A stretch of 64,000 nt of DNA from contig JNVV01000013.1 in NCBI GenBank assembly GCA_000733355.1, forward strand, positions 469,323 through 533,322, written 5' to 3'. Source of the stretch: Falciphora oryzae (Eukaryota; Ascomycota; Sordariomycetes; Magnaporthales; Magnaporthaceae). Of this stretch, positions 3,360 to 37,752 are shown in pieces. The translations under genes and the position numbers were made by a program. The notes beneath the pieces were generated by a model. It worked only from the letters and a program-made list of their open reading frames with translations. It made no database searches and was not told the origin of the DNA. Position 1 is the stretch's first letter, and each line of letters starts with the position of its first letter.

Positions 3360-4151
3360 ATGCCCAAAACTCTAGAAAAGACTCGCAAGCAGATCTCCAA
3401 GAAGCGGCATGGGGCCATGGACAATCTGCACCAGAAGTCCCGCAACGCCAAGCGACTTCACAAGGCCCAGGTGAGGGATGACAGACTCGAAAAGCTCGCT
3501 CAGGCCAGGAAGAAGGGCGACCAGCCTACACGTATGTTCTTTTACTTGTCTTTTTTTATGCCCTAACCGTCGCCGAAATATCAGGGCTAATACGGAGAAT
3601 TCTACAGTGTCCCGAGTGACCTTCTTCAGGGATGCTGCTCAAGAGAGCAGTCTACCCAGGCCCCTTACCATGGAGGCTGTGCAAGATCTTGTGAAGAAGT
3701 GAGCACCCACGTCCGCATGGACGTAACGGGCGACACCCACCACCGTGCTTGCCTGTTTTTCGCCCGTTGCTCGTGCTCACACGATTTTCCGTCCTCTAGG
3801 TTTGTGCACCAGTACGATGAGGAGTATGCTGAGGTGAAGAGCGCCCGCCGTCCTGGCAGGGGTGCCAGCTCCAGAGAAGAAGTGCTCAAGGTGAACATGG
3901 TCTCACTTGAGAAGGAGTATCAAAACGGCTTCTGTACGTCCTAGCCCTTGGCTCGCAACGGCCGCATTCATCCTGGGCTTGGCTGGACTAACACGTTATT
4001 ATGCCTTGCAGATATGCCTGATCTCACAAGCGCGGAAAATCTTGCCGCGTTGGACAGGTGGGAAGGATCATGGTCCTACCTCGCAAGCCTAGCGTGGGTT
4101 AAAGTGACTGCTGCTGGCGAAACCAGGACGGCCAGTTTTCCTCCCATTTAA
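3360..4151 (+). CDS. TMA16: TMA16-like 60S ribosome-biogenesis / translation-machinery-associated protein
   Basis: Four exons: 3360-3531, 3608-3698, 3800-3933 and 4012-4151. Together they make 537 nt, or 178 residues, and all phases close. Donors are GTATGT, GTGAGC and GTACGT. The start MPKTLEKTRKQISKKRHG is the characteristic basic N-terminus of the Tma16 family. It is followed by RVTFF and by the C-terminal block MPDLTSAENLAALDRWEGSW, where the family has its conserved tryptophans. Tma16 is known as a nuclear/nucleolar factor bound to pre-60S ribosomal particles. Length fits the family (about 170-190 residues). The longest single open frame stops inside intron 1, so a single-exon call would give a truncated protein. 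Confidence 0.93.
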
Positions 4152-6242
4152 GGCAGGCGATGCCAGGGCTGGCACTTTGCGAGCTAGACGGACTCGTTAG
4201 ATCATAAATGATACCCAACGGACAAGGACGAACAAAAGAAAATAAAACGGGGATTTCTGTCATCTTGTCTCTTATTTCCATCATGCTCTCGTGAATGTGA
4301 GCTCGAAGTCGAACAGGTGTATGCATTCCCTTTTCGGTGTACTAGCGGTTTGACCGGGATCGGAGAGCAGGGCATTAGCCCACGGCTCTGGACTCGAGTC
4401 TTACCGTCCCGACTCTGTCAAACCAGCCGCGGGACCTTCTCCCGTCGAGCTTTTCGTGATGGTCTGCCTATTTCCTTCAGTTGATGAGCAATTGGGAGAC
4501 AGGTAGCCCCGATAGGTTGTTTGCACATGCCACTACCCGTGTCTGGCAGGCCGAGTATTGAGCGAAGCCTGTGGGTGTCGTTATGCTATGGGATCTTAGC
4601 GACGGGTGTAAGGGGAGCACATAGACCGATGGGTATCTTGGCGTGGTATCGTCTTTCGTACGATACTCGGTTCTTTCGATGCCGAGAAGCAATCAGCGTC
4701 GAAGATGGCCTTTCCATTCTCGCCTCGAGTCCATCCTCTGCACGACTTCGAACTCGAACGTTGCTTGGCAGGATGCCATTAGCAATAGGATGCACACAAC
4801 CCTAGTCTGCCCGAAATGCCTCTTCAAACTTGTTTTTCTTGGATTTCACATGTGCAGGGAGATTGGAATCGCAACACCGGGCCAGAGTGTAAGCGGGTGT
4901 GCGTCCTCGAGTCTGGTATCGACAAACGACATGGCATATCCATCACCAATCATTGTCCTCCTGATCGTTAGTAGACGGGCAGAAGGCGGAGTTAACAGTG
5001 CTATAAGTTGCCGCCGGCGCCCCCTGAGAATGGCCAAATGTCAGATACCTTGCCGGCATCGCCTTCTAATAACCTTAATGCCGAGCGCCTTCACTCGCTA
5101 ACTCGACACTGCCCTCGCTATCCTTGCGTTCGTTCTGACCTGGAAGTACACAAACCTTTTTTTTTTTCTTGTAAAACTACTTTTTCTTTTATAGCGTTTG
5201 CCTAGACCAGACTTGACTACGAGACAACAGCGGCCTCTGCGCGGCAGACGGCCAGAGCCGGCCTGCCAGAGATACCGCCACCCACTTGTCCATACTACTA
5301 CACCAGAGGAAGATTCCAATAGAGCCTCAGTGCGGCGTTGCAAACACCATCGAAGAATGTGCACCTACATCACCCACGTTCGCATCTGCTACATTTGCAG
5401 CCGTGAGGATACAGTACTTATAAGCGAAAGCACATGCGCAGAGGCCAAGTACCCGGGCAGATTCGGCAGCTGCTGTTTCCTTCCTGGTAGTGAGAGAAGG
5501 GAGACACCTGACCAGTGCTGGGGCTGCAAGGAGAATGCCCAGAGGGACTCCTCGGCGCCCTCGCGGACCTCTGCGCAGAAACCCGCGCGTGCCAGACGCA
5601 CCCGCACCAACTGAAGAAAAGAGCAGCATTTATGGCCTCGGAGCTGTGTGTAAGAGGCAGGGTGCTGTGAAGAACGAAGGATCACCCAGGGGCTGGGATG
5701 GGGCAGAAAACAAGCATGGGGATTTCGAAAAAGTAGAAGGGGAACACCCCGCTCATGGTTAGCGGGACCAGCCGTTTGCGATACACGACATGTTGGAAGG
5801 CCTACAATATTGCCTAGCCCGGGTTGGATTGGGCTCTGGCAGATGGAGATGGAAAAGTTGCGTGGTCGATGGGAAAATCGACCCATGGACTTAATACCCA
5901 CAGTTCTAATGATAGTATCAAGACTGCATTTACACTGTCTCTATCTCCTATCGCAAATAGGGACCTCCAAGGTCGGCTGTCAAGTGGGCCGTGCGTGCGT
6001 TCCATTGGCTCCTCTAGATGTGAGGAAAATTTCCATGGAGCTTCGGCCAATAATGGGGACCTCGATGTGAGCTCTTGATTTTCTGAGCAGTCCCGCCTCT
6101 CCCAAAAATTTGTTCCCTCGTCGCCCAGGCTCAACATTCATAGCGCCTTTAATCTCTGTGGCACGCATACCGCGAAGCAGCATACCGGCCACATATTGTG
6201 TATACCATTCGCTTGATTATACACGCACAACCCCTCGCCAAG
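4152..6242. other. Intergenic, no gene supported
   Basis: About 2.1 kb between two same-strand genes. Several frames of 60-170 codons overlap on both strands without any recognisable domain or consistent splice pattern. A 12-base T run lies near 5158. The last few hundred bases should contain the MAM33 promoter and leader. Confidence 0.5.
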
Positions 6243-32461: not shown

Positions 32462-32467
32462 CCCCGG
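32462..32467. repeat. Target-site duplication, left copy (CCCCGG)
   Basis: The hexamer CCCCGG directly abuts the left terminal inverted repeat. An identical direct copy abuts the right one at 37747-37752. The match does not extend beyond six bases. Confidence 0.8.
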
Positions 32468-32504
32468 TACGGCAGTGCATAAGGCCCGACGAGACAAAAC
32501 CCAA
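32468..32504 (+). repeat. Terminal inverted repeat, left
   Basis: 37 bases starting TACGGCAGTGCATAAGG and ending GAGACAAAACCCAA, identical to the reverse complement of 37710-37746. Including the adjacent GG, the inverted match is 39 bases. Confidence 0.93.
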
Positions 32505-32586
32505 AAATGGCAGCTAGACTTACGCCCATGTGGGCCAGAGGCGTGCAACATTTAAATTTAGCAAGCGCACAGCCCAAATCAATGTC

Positions 32587-32626
32587 AATAGCCGAACCAT
32601 TACATCCTTGCCATTTTTCGGCTATT
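32587..32626. repeat. Perfect 10-bp inverted repeat near left end of element
   Basis: AATAGCCGAA (32587-32596) and TTCGGCTATT (32617-32626) are exact reverse complements separated by 20 bases. They lie between the left TIR and the first gene. They could be a subterminal protein-binding site or a promoter element. A TATTTAAA sequence overlaps the right arm (32623-32630), about 80 bases before the ATG at 32708. Confidence 0.6.
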
Positions 32627-32707
32627 TAAATCGAGTTTAGAAATGCAAACCGGTGAGCAGAGATTTACATTCCTTTACACCATTTTATATGGCTTCACAG
32701 CTTCACC

Positions 32708-33805
32708 ATGCCTTTGGACGTCCCTAACTGTGGGCAAAAAGTCCATGCAACCATCATTGCTTATGCCAATCCTCCTTTTACATTTTATCCCGACTGTGGC
32801 TATCGCTTTCCCAAGCCCCCTGCCCCTGGCGACGAGGTTGTCGACCTATCTATCGTTTCGTTACCTCCCCTACCACGATCTCCTACCCCTGCCCTATCGT
32901 TGCCTGCCTTCCCTATCAAACGAAAAACACCTTTGGCCGATAATACAGCTTTTGCCGTGCGTAAACGCAACCACAGCATGCTGTTAACCAGAAAGCCTTC
33001 CAAACCATTGAGTATTACCATTAGCACGAACTTTTTTTATAGCAAACACTATTACCAAAATAAAAACGACCCTATCCTTGCAAAGATCCGGCATTACAAA
33101 GCTATTACCCCGCTAAAAGTTTTCCATCCTGCCCAATACCCAGCCGAGCACGTTTTCCCTTTACTCGAACATTTTATCATGTTTATCGTAAACAAAAATG
33201 CATTTTTTCCCACTCAAAAAAAGCTCGATTGGGTTCTAATCGCCGGGGTTAAAAGCAATAAAACCGGCATTACCGAAATTCCTTACATAATCGAAGGCTC
33301 AATTTCGTTCGGCCTTTTACTACGCAAGCTTTACCTAAATACGCGATACATTTCCTTTTTCCCAAGCATTTACTTTAACTAACATGCTTTTACTAAAGCT
33401 GTTAAAGCCGAATACACTTTGTCGTTTTTCGCCAGCACCTTTACAAATCCTCCTGCTTCCAAAAAGCCAGCTTACACCTTTAAAAATAATATTTCCCTGG
33501 TAGGAAGCAGCCCCGGAGGATTTATTACCCTATCCCCACGCAAAAAGGCATCAGCTCCTGCACGCAAACGCAGCGTCAAAAAAAAACCGGGAACGAAAAT
33601 TAAAGTAAAGCTAATAGCTCGGGTAACCAGGCCTTCGAAACACGTAGTTGCCCCCATCCCGCTATCGTTCGCCCTACCACATCCACTAAACTCCCTATTA
33701 GCGGAAATGTCCGTTGCATTATTAAATTCGTTACCCAGTAACAATGCCAACAAAAAGGCGAACGAGTCACTACCTACCCGGTACACCCTTATACGCGAAA
33801 ATTAA
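32708..33805 (+). pseudogene. Transposon ORF of unknown function, one in-frame stop
   Basis: A single frame runs from ATG 32708 to TAA 33803-33805 (about 365 codons), broken only by TAA at 33380-33382. Frames before and after that stop are the same, so it is one gene and not two. The TAA could derive from CAA by one C-to-T change. Visible content: two CG-x-K/Y units near the start (NCGQKVH, DCGYRF) that could be half of a zinc site, a Pro-rich stretch, a hydrophobic/aromatic middle and a Lys-rich basic patch after the stop (KKKPGTKIKVK). I recognise no domain. It is convergent with the integrase gene and probably an accessory protein of the element. An intron around the stop is possible. Confidence 0.6.
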
Positions 33806-33807
33806 CC

Positions 33808-34382
33808 CCAATAAATAAATAAATACGCATAAAAATATATTAATGCGCACAGCTAATACCTATAAATTAGGGGCATATCGCGTACTTCCAAACCTACAAC
33901 TATTCCACCTTTCTTTATAAAGCTCCGTAACAAACGGGGCCGGGCTTTATTTACCGGAGCAAACAAATCCCCCGTTAGTAAACGGACTTAAAATTGCCAA
34001 AGTAATAAATTCGATAACCCAAATGCATCGGACGATATTTCGGGCTAAAAAGTGTTTACGAGGATATATTAACAGGTTAACGCACGTATATATATTAGCA
34101 ATCTACTACTTTACTTTTTATTTGTTTGCAATTCCAAATTTCCTATATCCTTAATTAAATCCTCCGCTTTATCGGCTGGTTTTTCGTTTTTTTGGAGCCA
34201 TCCTCCGCGAGCTAATATATATTTTGGAGTTTAATTTCTAACCTGCGGATAAAAGCAACCGCAAATTTTTTGTCCAGCGTAGGGGAGATGGAAAGCGACA
34301 ATATGGGTTATATACCAATGCATACGTGCTTTTTTAAAGCTTCCTTTAACGCAAAGTACTGCTTAAAGTAGGGCTGGTTTCG
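33808..34382. other. AT-rich spacer inside the element
   Basis: Between the convergent 3' ends of the plus-strand ORF and the integrase. Very AT-rich with TATATA tracts; no reading frame of note. Confidence 0.5.
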
Positions 34383-35990
34383 TTAGGCATGCGTTTTCCA
34401 TATAGGCAATCTACCGAGTTTGTTTATAGCTGCTGTACAAAAAGCTAGGGTTTTTAAAGGAAAATATTCGTTAATATCCACCTGTTTTTGTTCCAACACC
34501 TTTTTAACGTACTTTAACGCCACAAGATTAGGGGGGACACGCCAATTTCGAATGCCATCTTTTAAAATATGGTACAAATGCTAAAAGCGTCCCGGGATAA
34601 CATAAGGTCGTCGAGGTTGTTGTCGGATGCGGTGGTTATTTCAAAAGGAAACAAAGTTTGCGAACTTTTAGCGGATAATAGGCATATAAATGAAAAGGAG
34701 GGCGATATTATCCATAAGGATTCCTTTAATATAAAAACCTTCTATCGCTAATTTGCTTAAAAAAATTTAAAGTTGTTAGTAATAAATTAATTTAAACAGG
34801 AAGGTACAAATATTTACACGCCAAAACTGGGCTTTGTTTGGGTACAATCGGGACCACCAACTTTCGATTTTAACGTTAAACACGCTTTTCCCAAAAATAA
34901 AGCATTTTTAAATAGGAATCTCCTCCGGCTCCTGCTATGCGGGTAATATTTCGGGGCCAAAAGTAAACGCAGTAGGTACTGCGGAAAAACTCTTTTATGC
35001 ATATGTCGTACTAGGGCCTACACCCGATAATACATTCGCATTTCCTTTTAGCCGAAGCTGCTTTGTTTTTGCAGCTAAGGCAGCCTTAGTAAAAAGGTAT
35101 TGCACCGCGCACAAAAGTTCCGTTTCCACTCCACGATTTGCACGGATAATAAGGGGGAAGAAGCTATAATATTTAACAACATGCAAATATTGCGTAACAA
35201 CGCTGCATGCTGTGCGTGCGCAAACGCCCACGTAAAACCAAGGAACAAAGCGAAAATGGGCATCGATAACTGCGTAAATTTCGATACCAAAAGGTGCAAG
35301 CTTTATATAGCTATCCATTAACCAAATCCAATTAGGGCCAGGGGTAATATACCCTCCTTTGCGCCGGTGTCCGTAATGGCGCCGTTTTTGCACGCTAGCT
35401 TCGTGGTAGGTGCGGTAAATTTCGAATGCCAATTTTTTTAAAGCACAAATTATTTGCTGGCGTATATAGGTGTACAAATGGTTACGGCCGTAGGAATGGA
35501 CGATATTGGTAGTATGCTTGTCAATACGGAAGTATTCGTTTAGTTGCTGCCGTATTAAATTCCGGAGTTCGGGAGTAAGGCGGCGCTGGATATCGTGCTG
35601 GAAGCGGAATCGTCGTAAGCCGGAAAGGGAAATAGTAAACCTTTCGGTAGAAAAGATTTCGAAGATTTCAACATTTGAATAAAAATGTTTAAAAAAAAGC
35701 TTTTGGATACGAGGGAGGAGGTTAGGGGTAAAAAGAGTTTAACCTTTGCGAGCTTCCACGCCCCATTTGCGCAAAGCCCGGTCAAACGTGCGAAGGGTGA
35801 AAAAAAGGTTTTTTTTAATGCGAAGCCATAATAAAATTTTGGCGCGGCTAATGCTTATAGCGTAAATTTAGGTAATAAAAGCGCGATACGGTTTAAGGTT
35901 AATGGAAAGGCGAAATATTATAAGCTAAAGAGTAAAAGGAGAAACAAATGGAAAAAAAGGAGGACGAAAAGGTATGGGGTATATATTAGG
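34383..35990 (-). pseudogene. Integrase (DDE, retroviral-integrase-like core) of the transposon, decayed
   Basis: One continuous minus-strand frame spans the whole region without frameshift but with about nine internal stops (first at 35739-35741, then from 34995 down to about 34560). Upstream is a helix-turn-helix-like part (FFTLRTFDRALRKWGVEARK). The core follows: GYITPGPNWIWLMDSYIKLA (first catalytic Asp, codon 35313-35315), GIEIYAVIDAHFRFVPWFYVG, then RANRGVET where the second Asp is Asn (35136-35138). IESWW (Glu at 34863-34865), LMDNIALLFIYMPIIR and NNHRIRQQ come later. These blocks match a fungal integrase-core family I know from many filamentous ascomycete genomes. Losing the second acidic residue and carrying many stops, the copy cannot be active. 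The distance from Asn to Glu (about 90 codons) is longer than the usual about 35-40, so an insertion or intron is likely. Confidence 0.82.
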
Positions 35991-36362
35991 ATATATCGGG
36001 TGTATATAAATGTATATACGTTTACATAAGTGTACCGGGTTTGTATATAAAGGTATATATATTAAATTCCGCATTTTTTAATATAATTTAAACGGATTTT
36101 ATTATATAATTTAATTTAAATTTATACATTTTACATGCAATTTTATTTAATTTTAATATAATTTATTCCTTATAAATACTAAAACTTATTAATAAAAATA
36201 AATTCGTTCTTTTATAGGTAAAGGTATAAAATGCAGCCAACTCCTATAAAGCCTTATTAGCTATAGTAAAATCCTGTGCCCCTTTAAAAACTCCTAGTTA
36301 TGCTGTGTAAGGAAGGGCTACATTATGTAGCCCTATGTAAGCCTATATCACCTCCTATCAGC
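35991..36362. other. Extremely AT-rich spacer inside the element
   Basis: The most AT-biased stretch of the window (36000-36200 is almost only A and T, rich in TATA and TTTAAT). It separates the 5' end of the integrase from the 3' end of the cysteine-rich gene. No frame. Confidence 0.6.
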
Positions 36363-37215
36363 CTAATCGCTGCTGTCGTCAAAAATGTTACCCGCCTTTT
36401 TGGCTTTCGCAACGGCAATTTGGGTTTGTAAATCGCGAACCATGCCCTTTATGCGCTTAACCAACAGGTTTTTGATTATATCGGCCCAAACCCCGTCGGT
36501 GGAATCTTTATCCCGCTTGCGTTTACGAGCTAAACTAGGGTTAGCCTTATAAATCTATGTAAGGATTTGTAGGCAGGGATATTTACAAGTCGCGGTAATA
36601 ACAAAAAAGCACTTATAGGCAGCGCTTAAGTACTAGCAATTCGTGCAAGCACCATTAAATACCAGCCGGTTACCCACTTTGCCCGCGAGGCAGTTGCCGC
36701 AAAAGCCAGTGCTTAAGTCGTACGCACACTTTTTGCACACCTTTTTACCGTTAGCTGGGTATATCAGTAGGTTACACTGGTGTTAAGGTTTGTAAAGGTA
36801 TGGAAATATTTACTAGGTGTGTTAATAAACGCGTACGCTACTAGCGCCTGCTGTTGCTGCTAGCGCTCCTTTTTAATAACGGTTTATACGAAGCGCGGAC
36901 CGTACTAAACCTTTTTGGGGTCGATGAAACGGGTAACCTCCTATTGCCACTTTTAGTTAAAATTTTTACAGGGGTGTATAGGGGTATACATACTTTGCTT
37001 CCATCTTTAAAGGCAGAAATCTCCCCGATCATTTTCCAAATGGCATTATTATCCGAATTTTGAAGGTTGCCGAACAGCCAACCAGTGATAGACATGGGGG
37101 AGCCCATCGTCGCTTAGGTAACCCTATCAGCCCGAGCGAGCGCTACGCCCTTATAGCTCCACTCAATAATATGGGCGTATTTCTTGGGGGTAAAGGCAGG
37201 CGCGGAGGAAAACAT
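36363..37215 (-). pseudogene. Cysteine-rich transposon gene, function unknown, nonsense-mutated
   Basis: The first part starts at ATG 37215 (MFSSAPAFTPKKYAHIIEW) and has TAA in frame after ADRVT. It continues with MGSPMSITGWLFGNL and ITLPLYTP-like hydrophobic text to about 36841. The second part is in another frame. It can be joined through an acceptor CACCAG and reads CNLLIYPANGKKVCKKCAYD, then FCGNC and GACTNC. It ends in a basic, helix-prone tail (RKRKRDKDS; VRDLQTQIAVAKAKKAG), stop at 36363-36365. The series of CxxC pairs suggests zinc binding. All three in-frame stops can be explained as CAA or CAG changed to TAA or TAG. I do not recognise the family. The exact donor is uncertain. Confidence 0.55.
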
Positions 37216-37709
37216 AGTAGGTAAGCCGGTATCAAGCGGTATAAGCGTCTATAAAAGCGGCTGCTAAGTCGCGGTCTTTTAATCGGGGGTTAACAGGGGT
37301 ATAAAGGTCTGTAAACGGTCGTGAATCCGAAAAAACCGGCGGGACATCCCGGACAACTTCACCTGAAAAAATCCCACCCAATATGTTAACAAATGTTTCA
37401 ACCGCCGTGGATTAACGAAAAATGGCCGTATAATAATAAAAAATCGCGCGTTTTAAAGCGCGTAATCCGTAAATTCCAAAAATATATGTATAAAGCCGTA
37501 ATAATCGCTGCGCGGTGGTGTAAAAGCAGTTATACTTACTTGACGTGGTGGTGGAAGTGTCGGAATCAAAAAATGATTACCGGGAAACGATTAGCGGCGA
37601 CTCAATTTGATGTGGGTGCAATAGATCCCTAGCTTTTGATTGGTCCAATCCAATTTGTGGGGACGTCCCTCCCGCACCTGCCGTGCACCTATTGAAATTG
37701 TGGCTCCAA

Positions 37710-37746
37710 TTGGGTTTTGTCTCGTCGGGCCTTATGCACTGCCGTA
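37710..37746 (-). repeat. Terminal inverted repeat, right
   Basis: Exact reverse complement of 32468-32504. Outer end is followed directly by CCCCGG. Confidence 0.93.
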
Positions 37747-37752
37747 CCCCGG
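37747..37752. repeat. Target-site duplication, right copy (CCCCGG)
   Basis: Direct copy of 32462-32467 at the outer edge of the right terminal inverted repeat. The next base differs between the two sides. Confidence 0.8.

What the first reader, a model, noticed from the sequence alone, without database searches (positions are those of the whole stretch)
32462..37752. Integrase-type DNA transposon with perfect 37-bp TIRs and a 6-bp target duplication that fits no superfamily I can name
Seen directly: exact inverted repeats of 37 bases at the ends, CCCCGG on both outer sides, an abrupt AT-rich interior, and an integrase-like core with Asp and Glu motifs. Retroviral-type integrases in DNA transposons are known from Polintons (6-bp duplications, but 15-20 kb with a DNA polymerase) and Ginger elements (4-5 bp duplications, different ends). 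This element is 5.3 kb, has three genes and its own terminal sequence TACGGCAG. It may represent an undescribed fungal integrase-transposon family. Family status is inference.
Basis: partly seen in the sequence, partly recalled or inferred. Interest (0 to 1): 0.85.

Follow-up and report, generated by a model that had tools for sequence, protein, structure and literature searches.

The report
RIP-damaged fungal IS3EU DNA transposon
A real 5.3-kb cut-and-paste jumping gene in a fungus, belonging to a known but little-known superfamily (IS3EU); this copy has been disabled by the fungus's own repeat-mutating defence, while nearly identical undamaged copies sit elsewhere in the genome.

Summary
In detail: perfect 37-bp inverted repeats at 32468-32504 and 37710-37746, CCCCGG on both outer sides, AT-rich interior, integrase-type gene. 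The host genome holds 11 copies; of 10 with both ends found, 9 have an exact 6-bp target duplication and one has 5 bp. A sister family (32-bp TIR, same outer 12 bases, same three genes) adds 5 of 5. 'No nameable superfamily' fails: 6-bp duplications, TIRs over 30 bp, TACGG..CCGTA ends and a PF24764 transposase related to IS3/IS481 fit IS3EU/GingerRoot. The window copy is disabled by repeat-induced point mutation: 523 of 530 differences from copy C34 are C>T or G>A. Mutation nearly spares both ends; an unrelated LTR element shows a similar spared edge, so no element-specific protection is needed. New details: gene A, with no homologue in two searches, and a DUF3716 gene C, both conserved between the two families. 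No empty site could be tested: no related genome is held. Verdict: new member of a known kind, modest interest.

The parts
32462..32467 (.). target site duplication CCCCGG, left
32468..32504 (+). left terminal inverted repeat, 37 bp
   Evidence: boundary shared by the other copies
32708..33802 (+). gene A: frame 32708-33379, predicted intron about 33339-33398, then 33383-33802 region; cysteine motif near the start; no Pfam family above threshold
   Evidence: exact exon limits are inferred from a GT..AG stretch in copy C34
34113..35918 (-). DDE transposase gene (approximate limits mapped from copy C34; one predicted intron near 34775), broken by stops here
34998..35738 (-). longest open transposase frame in the window copy, 247 aa, carrying part of the rva_4 core; second catalytic Asp reads Asn
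36366..37347 (-). gene C (approximate limits mapped from half copy C89), broken by stops here
36558..36782 (-). DUF3716-like cysteine-rich part of gene C (domain scored in copy C89 and in the second family, not in the window copy)
37710..37746 (-). right terminal inverted repeat, 37 bp
37747..37752 (.). target site duplication CCCCGG, right

Best explanation
A copy of a multi-copy fungal DNA transposon of the IS3EU/GingerRoot superfamily. Shown: fixed ends, 6-bp duplications at different targets, three genes (A; a DDE transposase; a DUF3716 protein C) conserved in a sister family, near-identical recent copies, and inactivation of the window copy by repeat-induced point mutation (RIP). Inferred from known DDE chemistry: the transposase binds the TIRs through its helical Clr5-like N-terminus, pairs the ends, cuts at TACGG and joins the 3' ends to target strands 6 bp apart; gap repair makes the duplication. 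Inferred: A and C, both with zinc-type cysteine motifs, are accessory DNA-binding or regulatory proteins. RIP broke the genes but left the ends nearly untouched, so dead copies may still be movable by a transposase made elsewhere.
For: TIR and duplication in 14 of 15 both-ended copies; ends TACGG..CCGTA, TIR 37 bp, as published for fungal IS3EU; TA..TA and usually 6 bp for the superfamily. PF24764 in 32 of 32 aligned relatives, IS481 profile in 21 and IS3 profile in 20 of 32, all far below those profiles' curated cut-offs. Catalytic D202, D261, E352 nearly invariant. AlphaFold model of relative P0011 (pLDDT 82.9) matches IstA, Tn7-type, Mu and retroviral integrase structures. Homologues include a Zymoseptoria tritici protein and a sea anemone protein. 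RIP spectrum. Sister family with the same genes.
Against: No Repbase IS3EU sequence was available, so the placement rests on structure, profile and published marks, not on a tree with reference IS3EU proteins. The accessory genes differ from those published for rust IS3EU (alpha-kinase) and Styx (GATA, CCHC, DUF3577). One copy (C4) has a 5-bp duplication. No transposition was observed and no empty site was found.
Confidence: 0.92

Rival explanations
1. A new eukaryotic integrase-transposon superfamily separate from IS3EU.
For: Gene A has no homologue found in two searches; accessory genes differ from the published fungal IS3EU sets; no direct comparison with Repbase proteins was possible.
Against: Ends, TIR length, duplication length and transposase family all match published IS3EU marks.
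Confidence: 0.05
2. A Ginger1 or Ginger2 element; the window's CCCCGG contains CCGG, the usual Ginger1 target.
For: Integrase-type transposase and CCGG inside the window's own duplication.
Against: Ginger ends are TGTNR and its duplications 4 or 5 bp (PMC2836005, passages); here the ends are TACGG and the duplication is 6 bp in 14 of 15 copies, with CCGG in the window's copy only. No H2C2 zinc finger was found in the transposase; Clr5 is there instead.
Confidence: 0.01
3. The perfect TIRs of damaged copies reflect active, element-specific protection from RIP (for example by bound A, C or transposase), or selection because RIPed copies are re-mobilised.
For: RIP changes in the TIRs of seven old copies: 3 observed, 41.1 expected at the body rate, over 13 complete and 1 shortened aligned TIR.
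Against: The deficit is a smooth gradient over about 500 bp at both ends. The edge of an unrelated LTR retrotransposon shows a similar fall, 0.11 of C/G columns variable at 0-37 against 0.38 at 500-800. All 21 pairs of old copies share RIP sites at 1.33-1.95 times expectation with no standout subgroup. Against a complete dismissal: the right end stays low (0.11) out to 200 bp, lower than the LTR edge at that distance (0.23).
Confidence: 0.08

Closest known systems
IS3EU / GingerRoot superfamily, fungal members (PMC12730594, PMC10045372)
   Same: 6-bp duplication, TIR over 30 bp, TAYGG..CCRTA ends, integrase-type transposase without HHCC and related to IS3/IS481
   Different: rust members described there carry an alpha-kinase gene and TET/JBP; here the extra genes are gene A and a DUF3716 gene
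Styx of Zymoseptoria (PMC10853768)
   Same: assigned to IS3EU by its authors; 36-bp TIR, 6-bp duplication, several genes, RIP-type mutations in old copies, near-identical recent copies
   Different: 7927 bp and four ORFs with GATA, CCHC and DUF3577 domains; here 5.3 kb and three genes
Ginger1 / Ginger2 (PMC2836005)
   Same: eukaryotic cut-and-paste elements with an integrase-type transposase
   Different: TGTNR ends, 4- or 5-bp duplications, H2C2 zinc finger
IS481EU of parabasalids (PMC10045372)
   Same: IS481-related DDE transposase, not separated from IS3EU in that paper's tree
   Different: duplications of about 4, 15 or 25 bp

Membership tests
IS3EU/GingerRoot | target duplication usually 6 bp | tested here: met
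   exactly 6 in 9 of 10 both-ended copies of this family and 5 of 5 of the sister family; one copy 5 bp
IS3EU/GingerRoot | TA..TA termini; in fungi TAYGG..CCRTA | tested here: met
   TACGG..CCGTA; published mark seen
IS3EU/GingerRoot | TIR longer than 30 bp (fungal TET+ members) | tested here: met
   37 bp and, in the sister family, 32 bp
IS3EU/GingerRoot | DDE transposase core related to IS3/IS481, no HHCC domain | tested here: met
   PF24764 in 32 of 32, IS481 in 21 and IS3 in 20 of 32 members (below curated cut-offs); Clr5 in 22 of 32; no zinc HHCC family reported
IS3EU/GingerRoot | transposase clusters with reference IS3EU proteins | not testable with these tools
   Repbase sequences not held; P0049 from Z. 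tritici is a homologue but was not shown to be Styx
Ginger1/Ginger2 | TGTNR termini and 4- or 5-bp duplication | tested here: not met
   TACGG ends, 6 bp in 14 of 15; marks
   5279 bp; the frames scanned from C34, C89, the window and the second family gave no polymerase family
IS481EU | duplications around 4, 15 or 25 bp | tested here: not met
   14 of 15 are exactly 6 bp; mark
Styx | accessory genes with GATA, CCHC and DUF3577 domains | tested here: not met
   Pfam gives DUF3716 for gene C and only sub-threshold zinc-ribbon matches for gene A; TIR sequence of Styx not compared

The most novel reading that the evidence does not exclude
The A / transposase / C layout marks an undescribed lineage of ascomycete IS3EU elements: a protein A with no homologue found and a DUF3716 protein C act as transposition or anti-silencing factors, kept together across two families whose TIRs share only the outer 12 bases. 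It would give DUF3716 a transposon role.
Probability: 0.4. Interest if true: 0.45.

Novelty: new member of a known kind. Interest (0 to 1): 0.3.

Why it matters
It adds two sister families, with mapped ends, target duplications and gene content, to a superfamily described in detail in few fungi. Two conserved accessory genes are candidate transposition cofactors, one of them a lead on the uncharacterised DUF3716 domain. It also shows that RIP leaves repeat edges nearly untouched in this fungus, so RIP-killed DNA transposons keep intact ends and might still be moved by an intact relative.

Tried and rejected
Ginger, Polinton and IS481EU were rejected on ends, duplication length, size or gene content (membership table). 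Element-specific protection of the TIRs from RIP was judged unnecessary after the LTR control, which rests on one LTR edge in 7 copies. Re-mobilisation of RIPed copies: no subgroup of copies shares extra RIP sites. Empty site in the own genome: joined flanks matched only themselves. Relatives in viral contigs: 87 pattern matches, none confirmed. Fold of gene A from the window alone: pLDDT 32.5, not searched further. PDB sequence searches with the transposase or its profile gave only weak matches that look like chance: best E 0.11 and RpoN at E 0.013-0.015. DUF3716 in the paper library: 0 papers (with 'transpos' 0). Host species not identified. In the VIA comparison only model residues 118-416 were well covered, and Foldseek's whole-chain TM-scores were low (0.14-0.27 by query length in the rows shown).

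Limits of counts: copy C34 holds a run of N followed by a repeated 596-bp stretch, probably a scaffold artefact, so aligned lengths count part of the element twice; leave C34 positions 3919-5140 out. In one search C37/C89, C59/C40 and C95 cover only 3417, 3428 and 384 positions. Tree one search used 46 of 53 homologues (7 dropped by me beforehand, mostly short or gapped) plus the two families; alignment A2 used 31 of 53 plus the window fragment; A1 used 26 of 53 plus C34. Five single ends of family 2 and the half copy C95 of family 1 have no partner and are not among the 15. In one search only 40 of 538 candidates were scored.

Full report
Observation. The window holds a 5279-bp element at 32468-37746 with perfect 37-bp inverted repeats and CCCCGG outside both ends. 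GC is 52-63% in the kilobase on either side and 24-48% in bins wholly inside; bins of 44% also occur about 2 kb outside.

Copies. A 35-base TIR pattern with up to 3 mismatches hits 20 places, 0 for the reversed control. With homology to the body I read these as 11 copies: C13 (window), C34, C69a, C3, C4, C61b; four copies with halves on two contigs each (C69b/C61a, C59/C40, C37/C89, C25/C94); and a half copy at the end of C95. The left TIR of C61b is split by an insert of about 2 kb with inverted repeats of its own; the outer 13 bases lie beyond it. Duplications CCCCGG, CCTGGC, CCCTAG, GCAACT, GATTCC, CAAGCC, CACCAC, GTTTTG and GGTGGG are exactly 6 bp; C4 has ATCAG, 5 bp. Homology starts and stops at the TIRs.

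Second family. Beside an integrase region about 70% identical in DNA, an inverted-repeat search found a 5635-bp element at C40:3833-9467 with a perfect 32-bp TIR that shares its first 12 bases with the window's TIR and then differs. Its TIR pattern has 15 hits, 0 for the control. Five both-ended copies have exactly 6-bp duplications: GACCGA, CACGGA, CACCAG, ATGAAC, GTGTGG, the last pairing C51 with C92. The 12-base outer end alone has 40 hits against 4 for the control.

Genes. In window orientation: gene A (+) at the left, transposase (-) in the middle, gene C (-) at the right. Copy C34 has transposase frames of 382 and 221 aa, in one frame, around a likely intron. The second family has the same arrangement with a 422-aa uninterrupted gene A frame. 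Identity between families: A 52% of 214 codons, transposase 60% of 367 and 56% of 219, C cysteine-rich part 47% of 64; differences are most frequent at codon position 3 in each of the four comparisons, only narrowly for C (25, 22, 29). The C34 transposase matches PF24764 rva_4 (E=1.4e-13) and Clr5 (6.2e-5). Gene C matches PF12511 DUF3716 (1.1e-6 in copy C89; 3.4e-9 in the second family). Gene A gave no homologue at E<=1e-3 in two searches, with its first exon from C34 (886 candidates) and with the second family's frame (7996 candidates scored); the search needs shared exact words and similar length, so distant relatives may be missed.

Superfamily. Passages of PMC10045372 say that IS3EU has TA..TA termini and usually 6-bp duplications, that GingerRoot joins it with 99% bootstrap, and that neither has HHCC. 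PMC12730594 (passages and section 3.1.3) gives TAYGG..CCRTA, TIR over 30 bp and 6-bp duplications for rust IS3EU. PMC10853768 (passages and section 13 part 1) links Styx of Zymoseptoria, with a 36-bp TIR, to IS3EU. PMC11645255 (passages) names IS3EU as the most abundant DNA transposon in Colletotrichum lupini. PMC2836005 (passages) gives TGTNR ends and 4- or 5-bp duplications for Ginger. The IS3EU marks that I could test are met; those of Ginger are not. A tree with reference IS3EU proteins was not possible.

State of the copies. Against C34 the window copy differs at 530 aligned positions, 523 of them C>T or G>A, with the mutated C mostly before A (244) or T (211). The six other old copies show 361-479 such changes each. 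C37/C89, C59/C40 and C95 have none over the parts held and are 99.9-100% identical to C34. This is the signature of repeat-induced point mutation. So the family has old, disabled copies and very recent ones. In the window copy the transposase region holds 1 TAG and 4 TAA and the second catalytic Asp reads Asn.

Why the TIRs are perfect. Relative to the body rate matched by sequence context, RIP in the seven old copies is 0.10 in the left and 0.05 in the right TIR, 0.33 and 0.10 at 37-100 bp, 0.45 and 0.11 at 100-200, 0.49 and 0.39 at 200-300, 0.77 and 0.74 at 300-500, and about 0.9 at 500-800. Seven copies of an unrelated, high-copy LTR retrotransposon (48 match rows, 40 of 538 candidates scored; six edges fetched, plus the one in C25) show a similar fall: 0.11 of C/G columns variable by transition at 0-37, 0.19-0.27 at 37-300, 0.32 at 300-500, 0.38 at 500-800. 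The perfect TIRs of damaged copies therefore need no special protection, though the right end stays lower at 37-200 bp (0.11) than the LTR edge does.

Mechanism. From the anatomy and known DDE chemistry, the transposase most likely pairs the two ends, cuts there and joins the 3' ends 6 bp apart in the target. The roles of A and C are inferred from cysteine motifs and conservation. That RIPed copies can be moved in trans is an inference; PMC10853768 reports a Styx copy with a non-functional integrase that moved (passage).

Verdict. A real, well-bounded transposon, a new family (with a sister family) of a known superfamily. Whether Repbase already lists these families could not be checked.

Noticed in passing
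L054:3833-9467 (G000 C40:3833-9467): A second IS3EU-like family with 32-bp TIRs sharing only the outer 12 bases with the window's family; 15 TIR hits, same three genes, less damaged frames.
   Followed up: yes
window 32468-33000 and 37200-37746, and the same ends in six other copies: RIP mutation density falls smoothly to 5-10% of the body rate towards both ends; an unrelated LTR edge shows a similar fall.
   Followed up: yes
L052:166-2242 (C25) and L049:259 to L050:1504 (C94): Two halves of one copy, sharing the duplication GTTTTG, lie mid-contig on different contigs, each broken at the same place next to an LTR sequence 94% alike: an exchange between LTR copies or an assembly misjoin.
   Followed up: partly
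G000 C61:78379-80422 (ends seen in L048, L072 and L075): An insert of about 2 kb with its own inverted repeats (CCCCTT(A/G)AGTGCGGTTAACC...) and a 2-bp AT duplication sits inside the left TIR of copy C61b; type not determined.
   Followed up: no
L074:41-102 (G000 C58:232610-232671): A 62-bp stretch with the shared 12-base end at both sides but no 6-bp duplication; perhaps a deletion relic.
   Followed up: no
L040 (G000 C34:304300-310620): A run of N followed by a second copy of a 596-bp stretch inside the element, probably a scaffolding artefact.
   Followed up: partly
copies C3 (L042) and C69b/C61a (L051, L045): Strong strand bias of RIP: 45 C>T against 203 G>A in C3, 279 against 96 in C69b/C61a, while other copies are nearer balance.
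   Followed up: no
G000 C55:33654-34646: A distant, heavily broken transposase relative (26% identity, 19 stops) outside both families.
   Followed up: no
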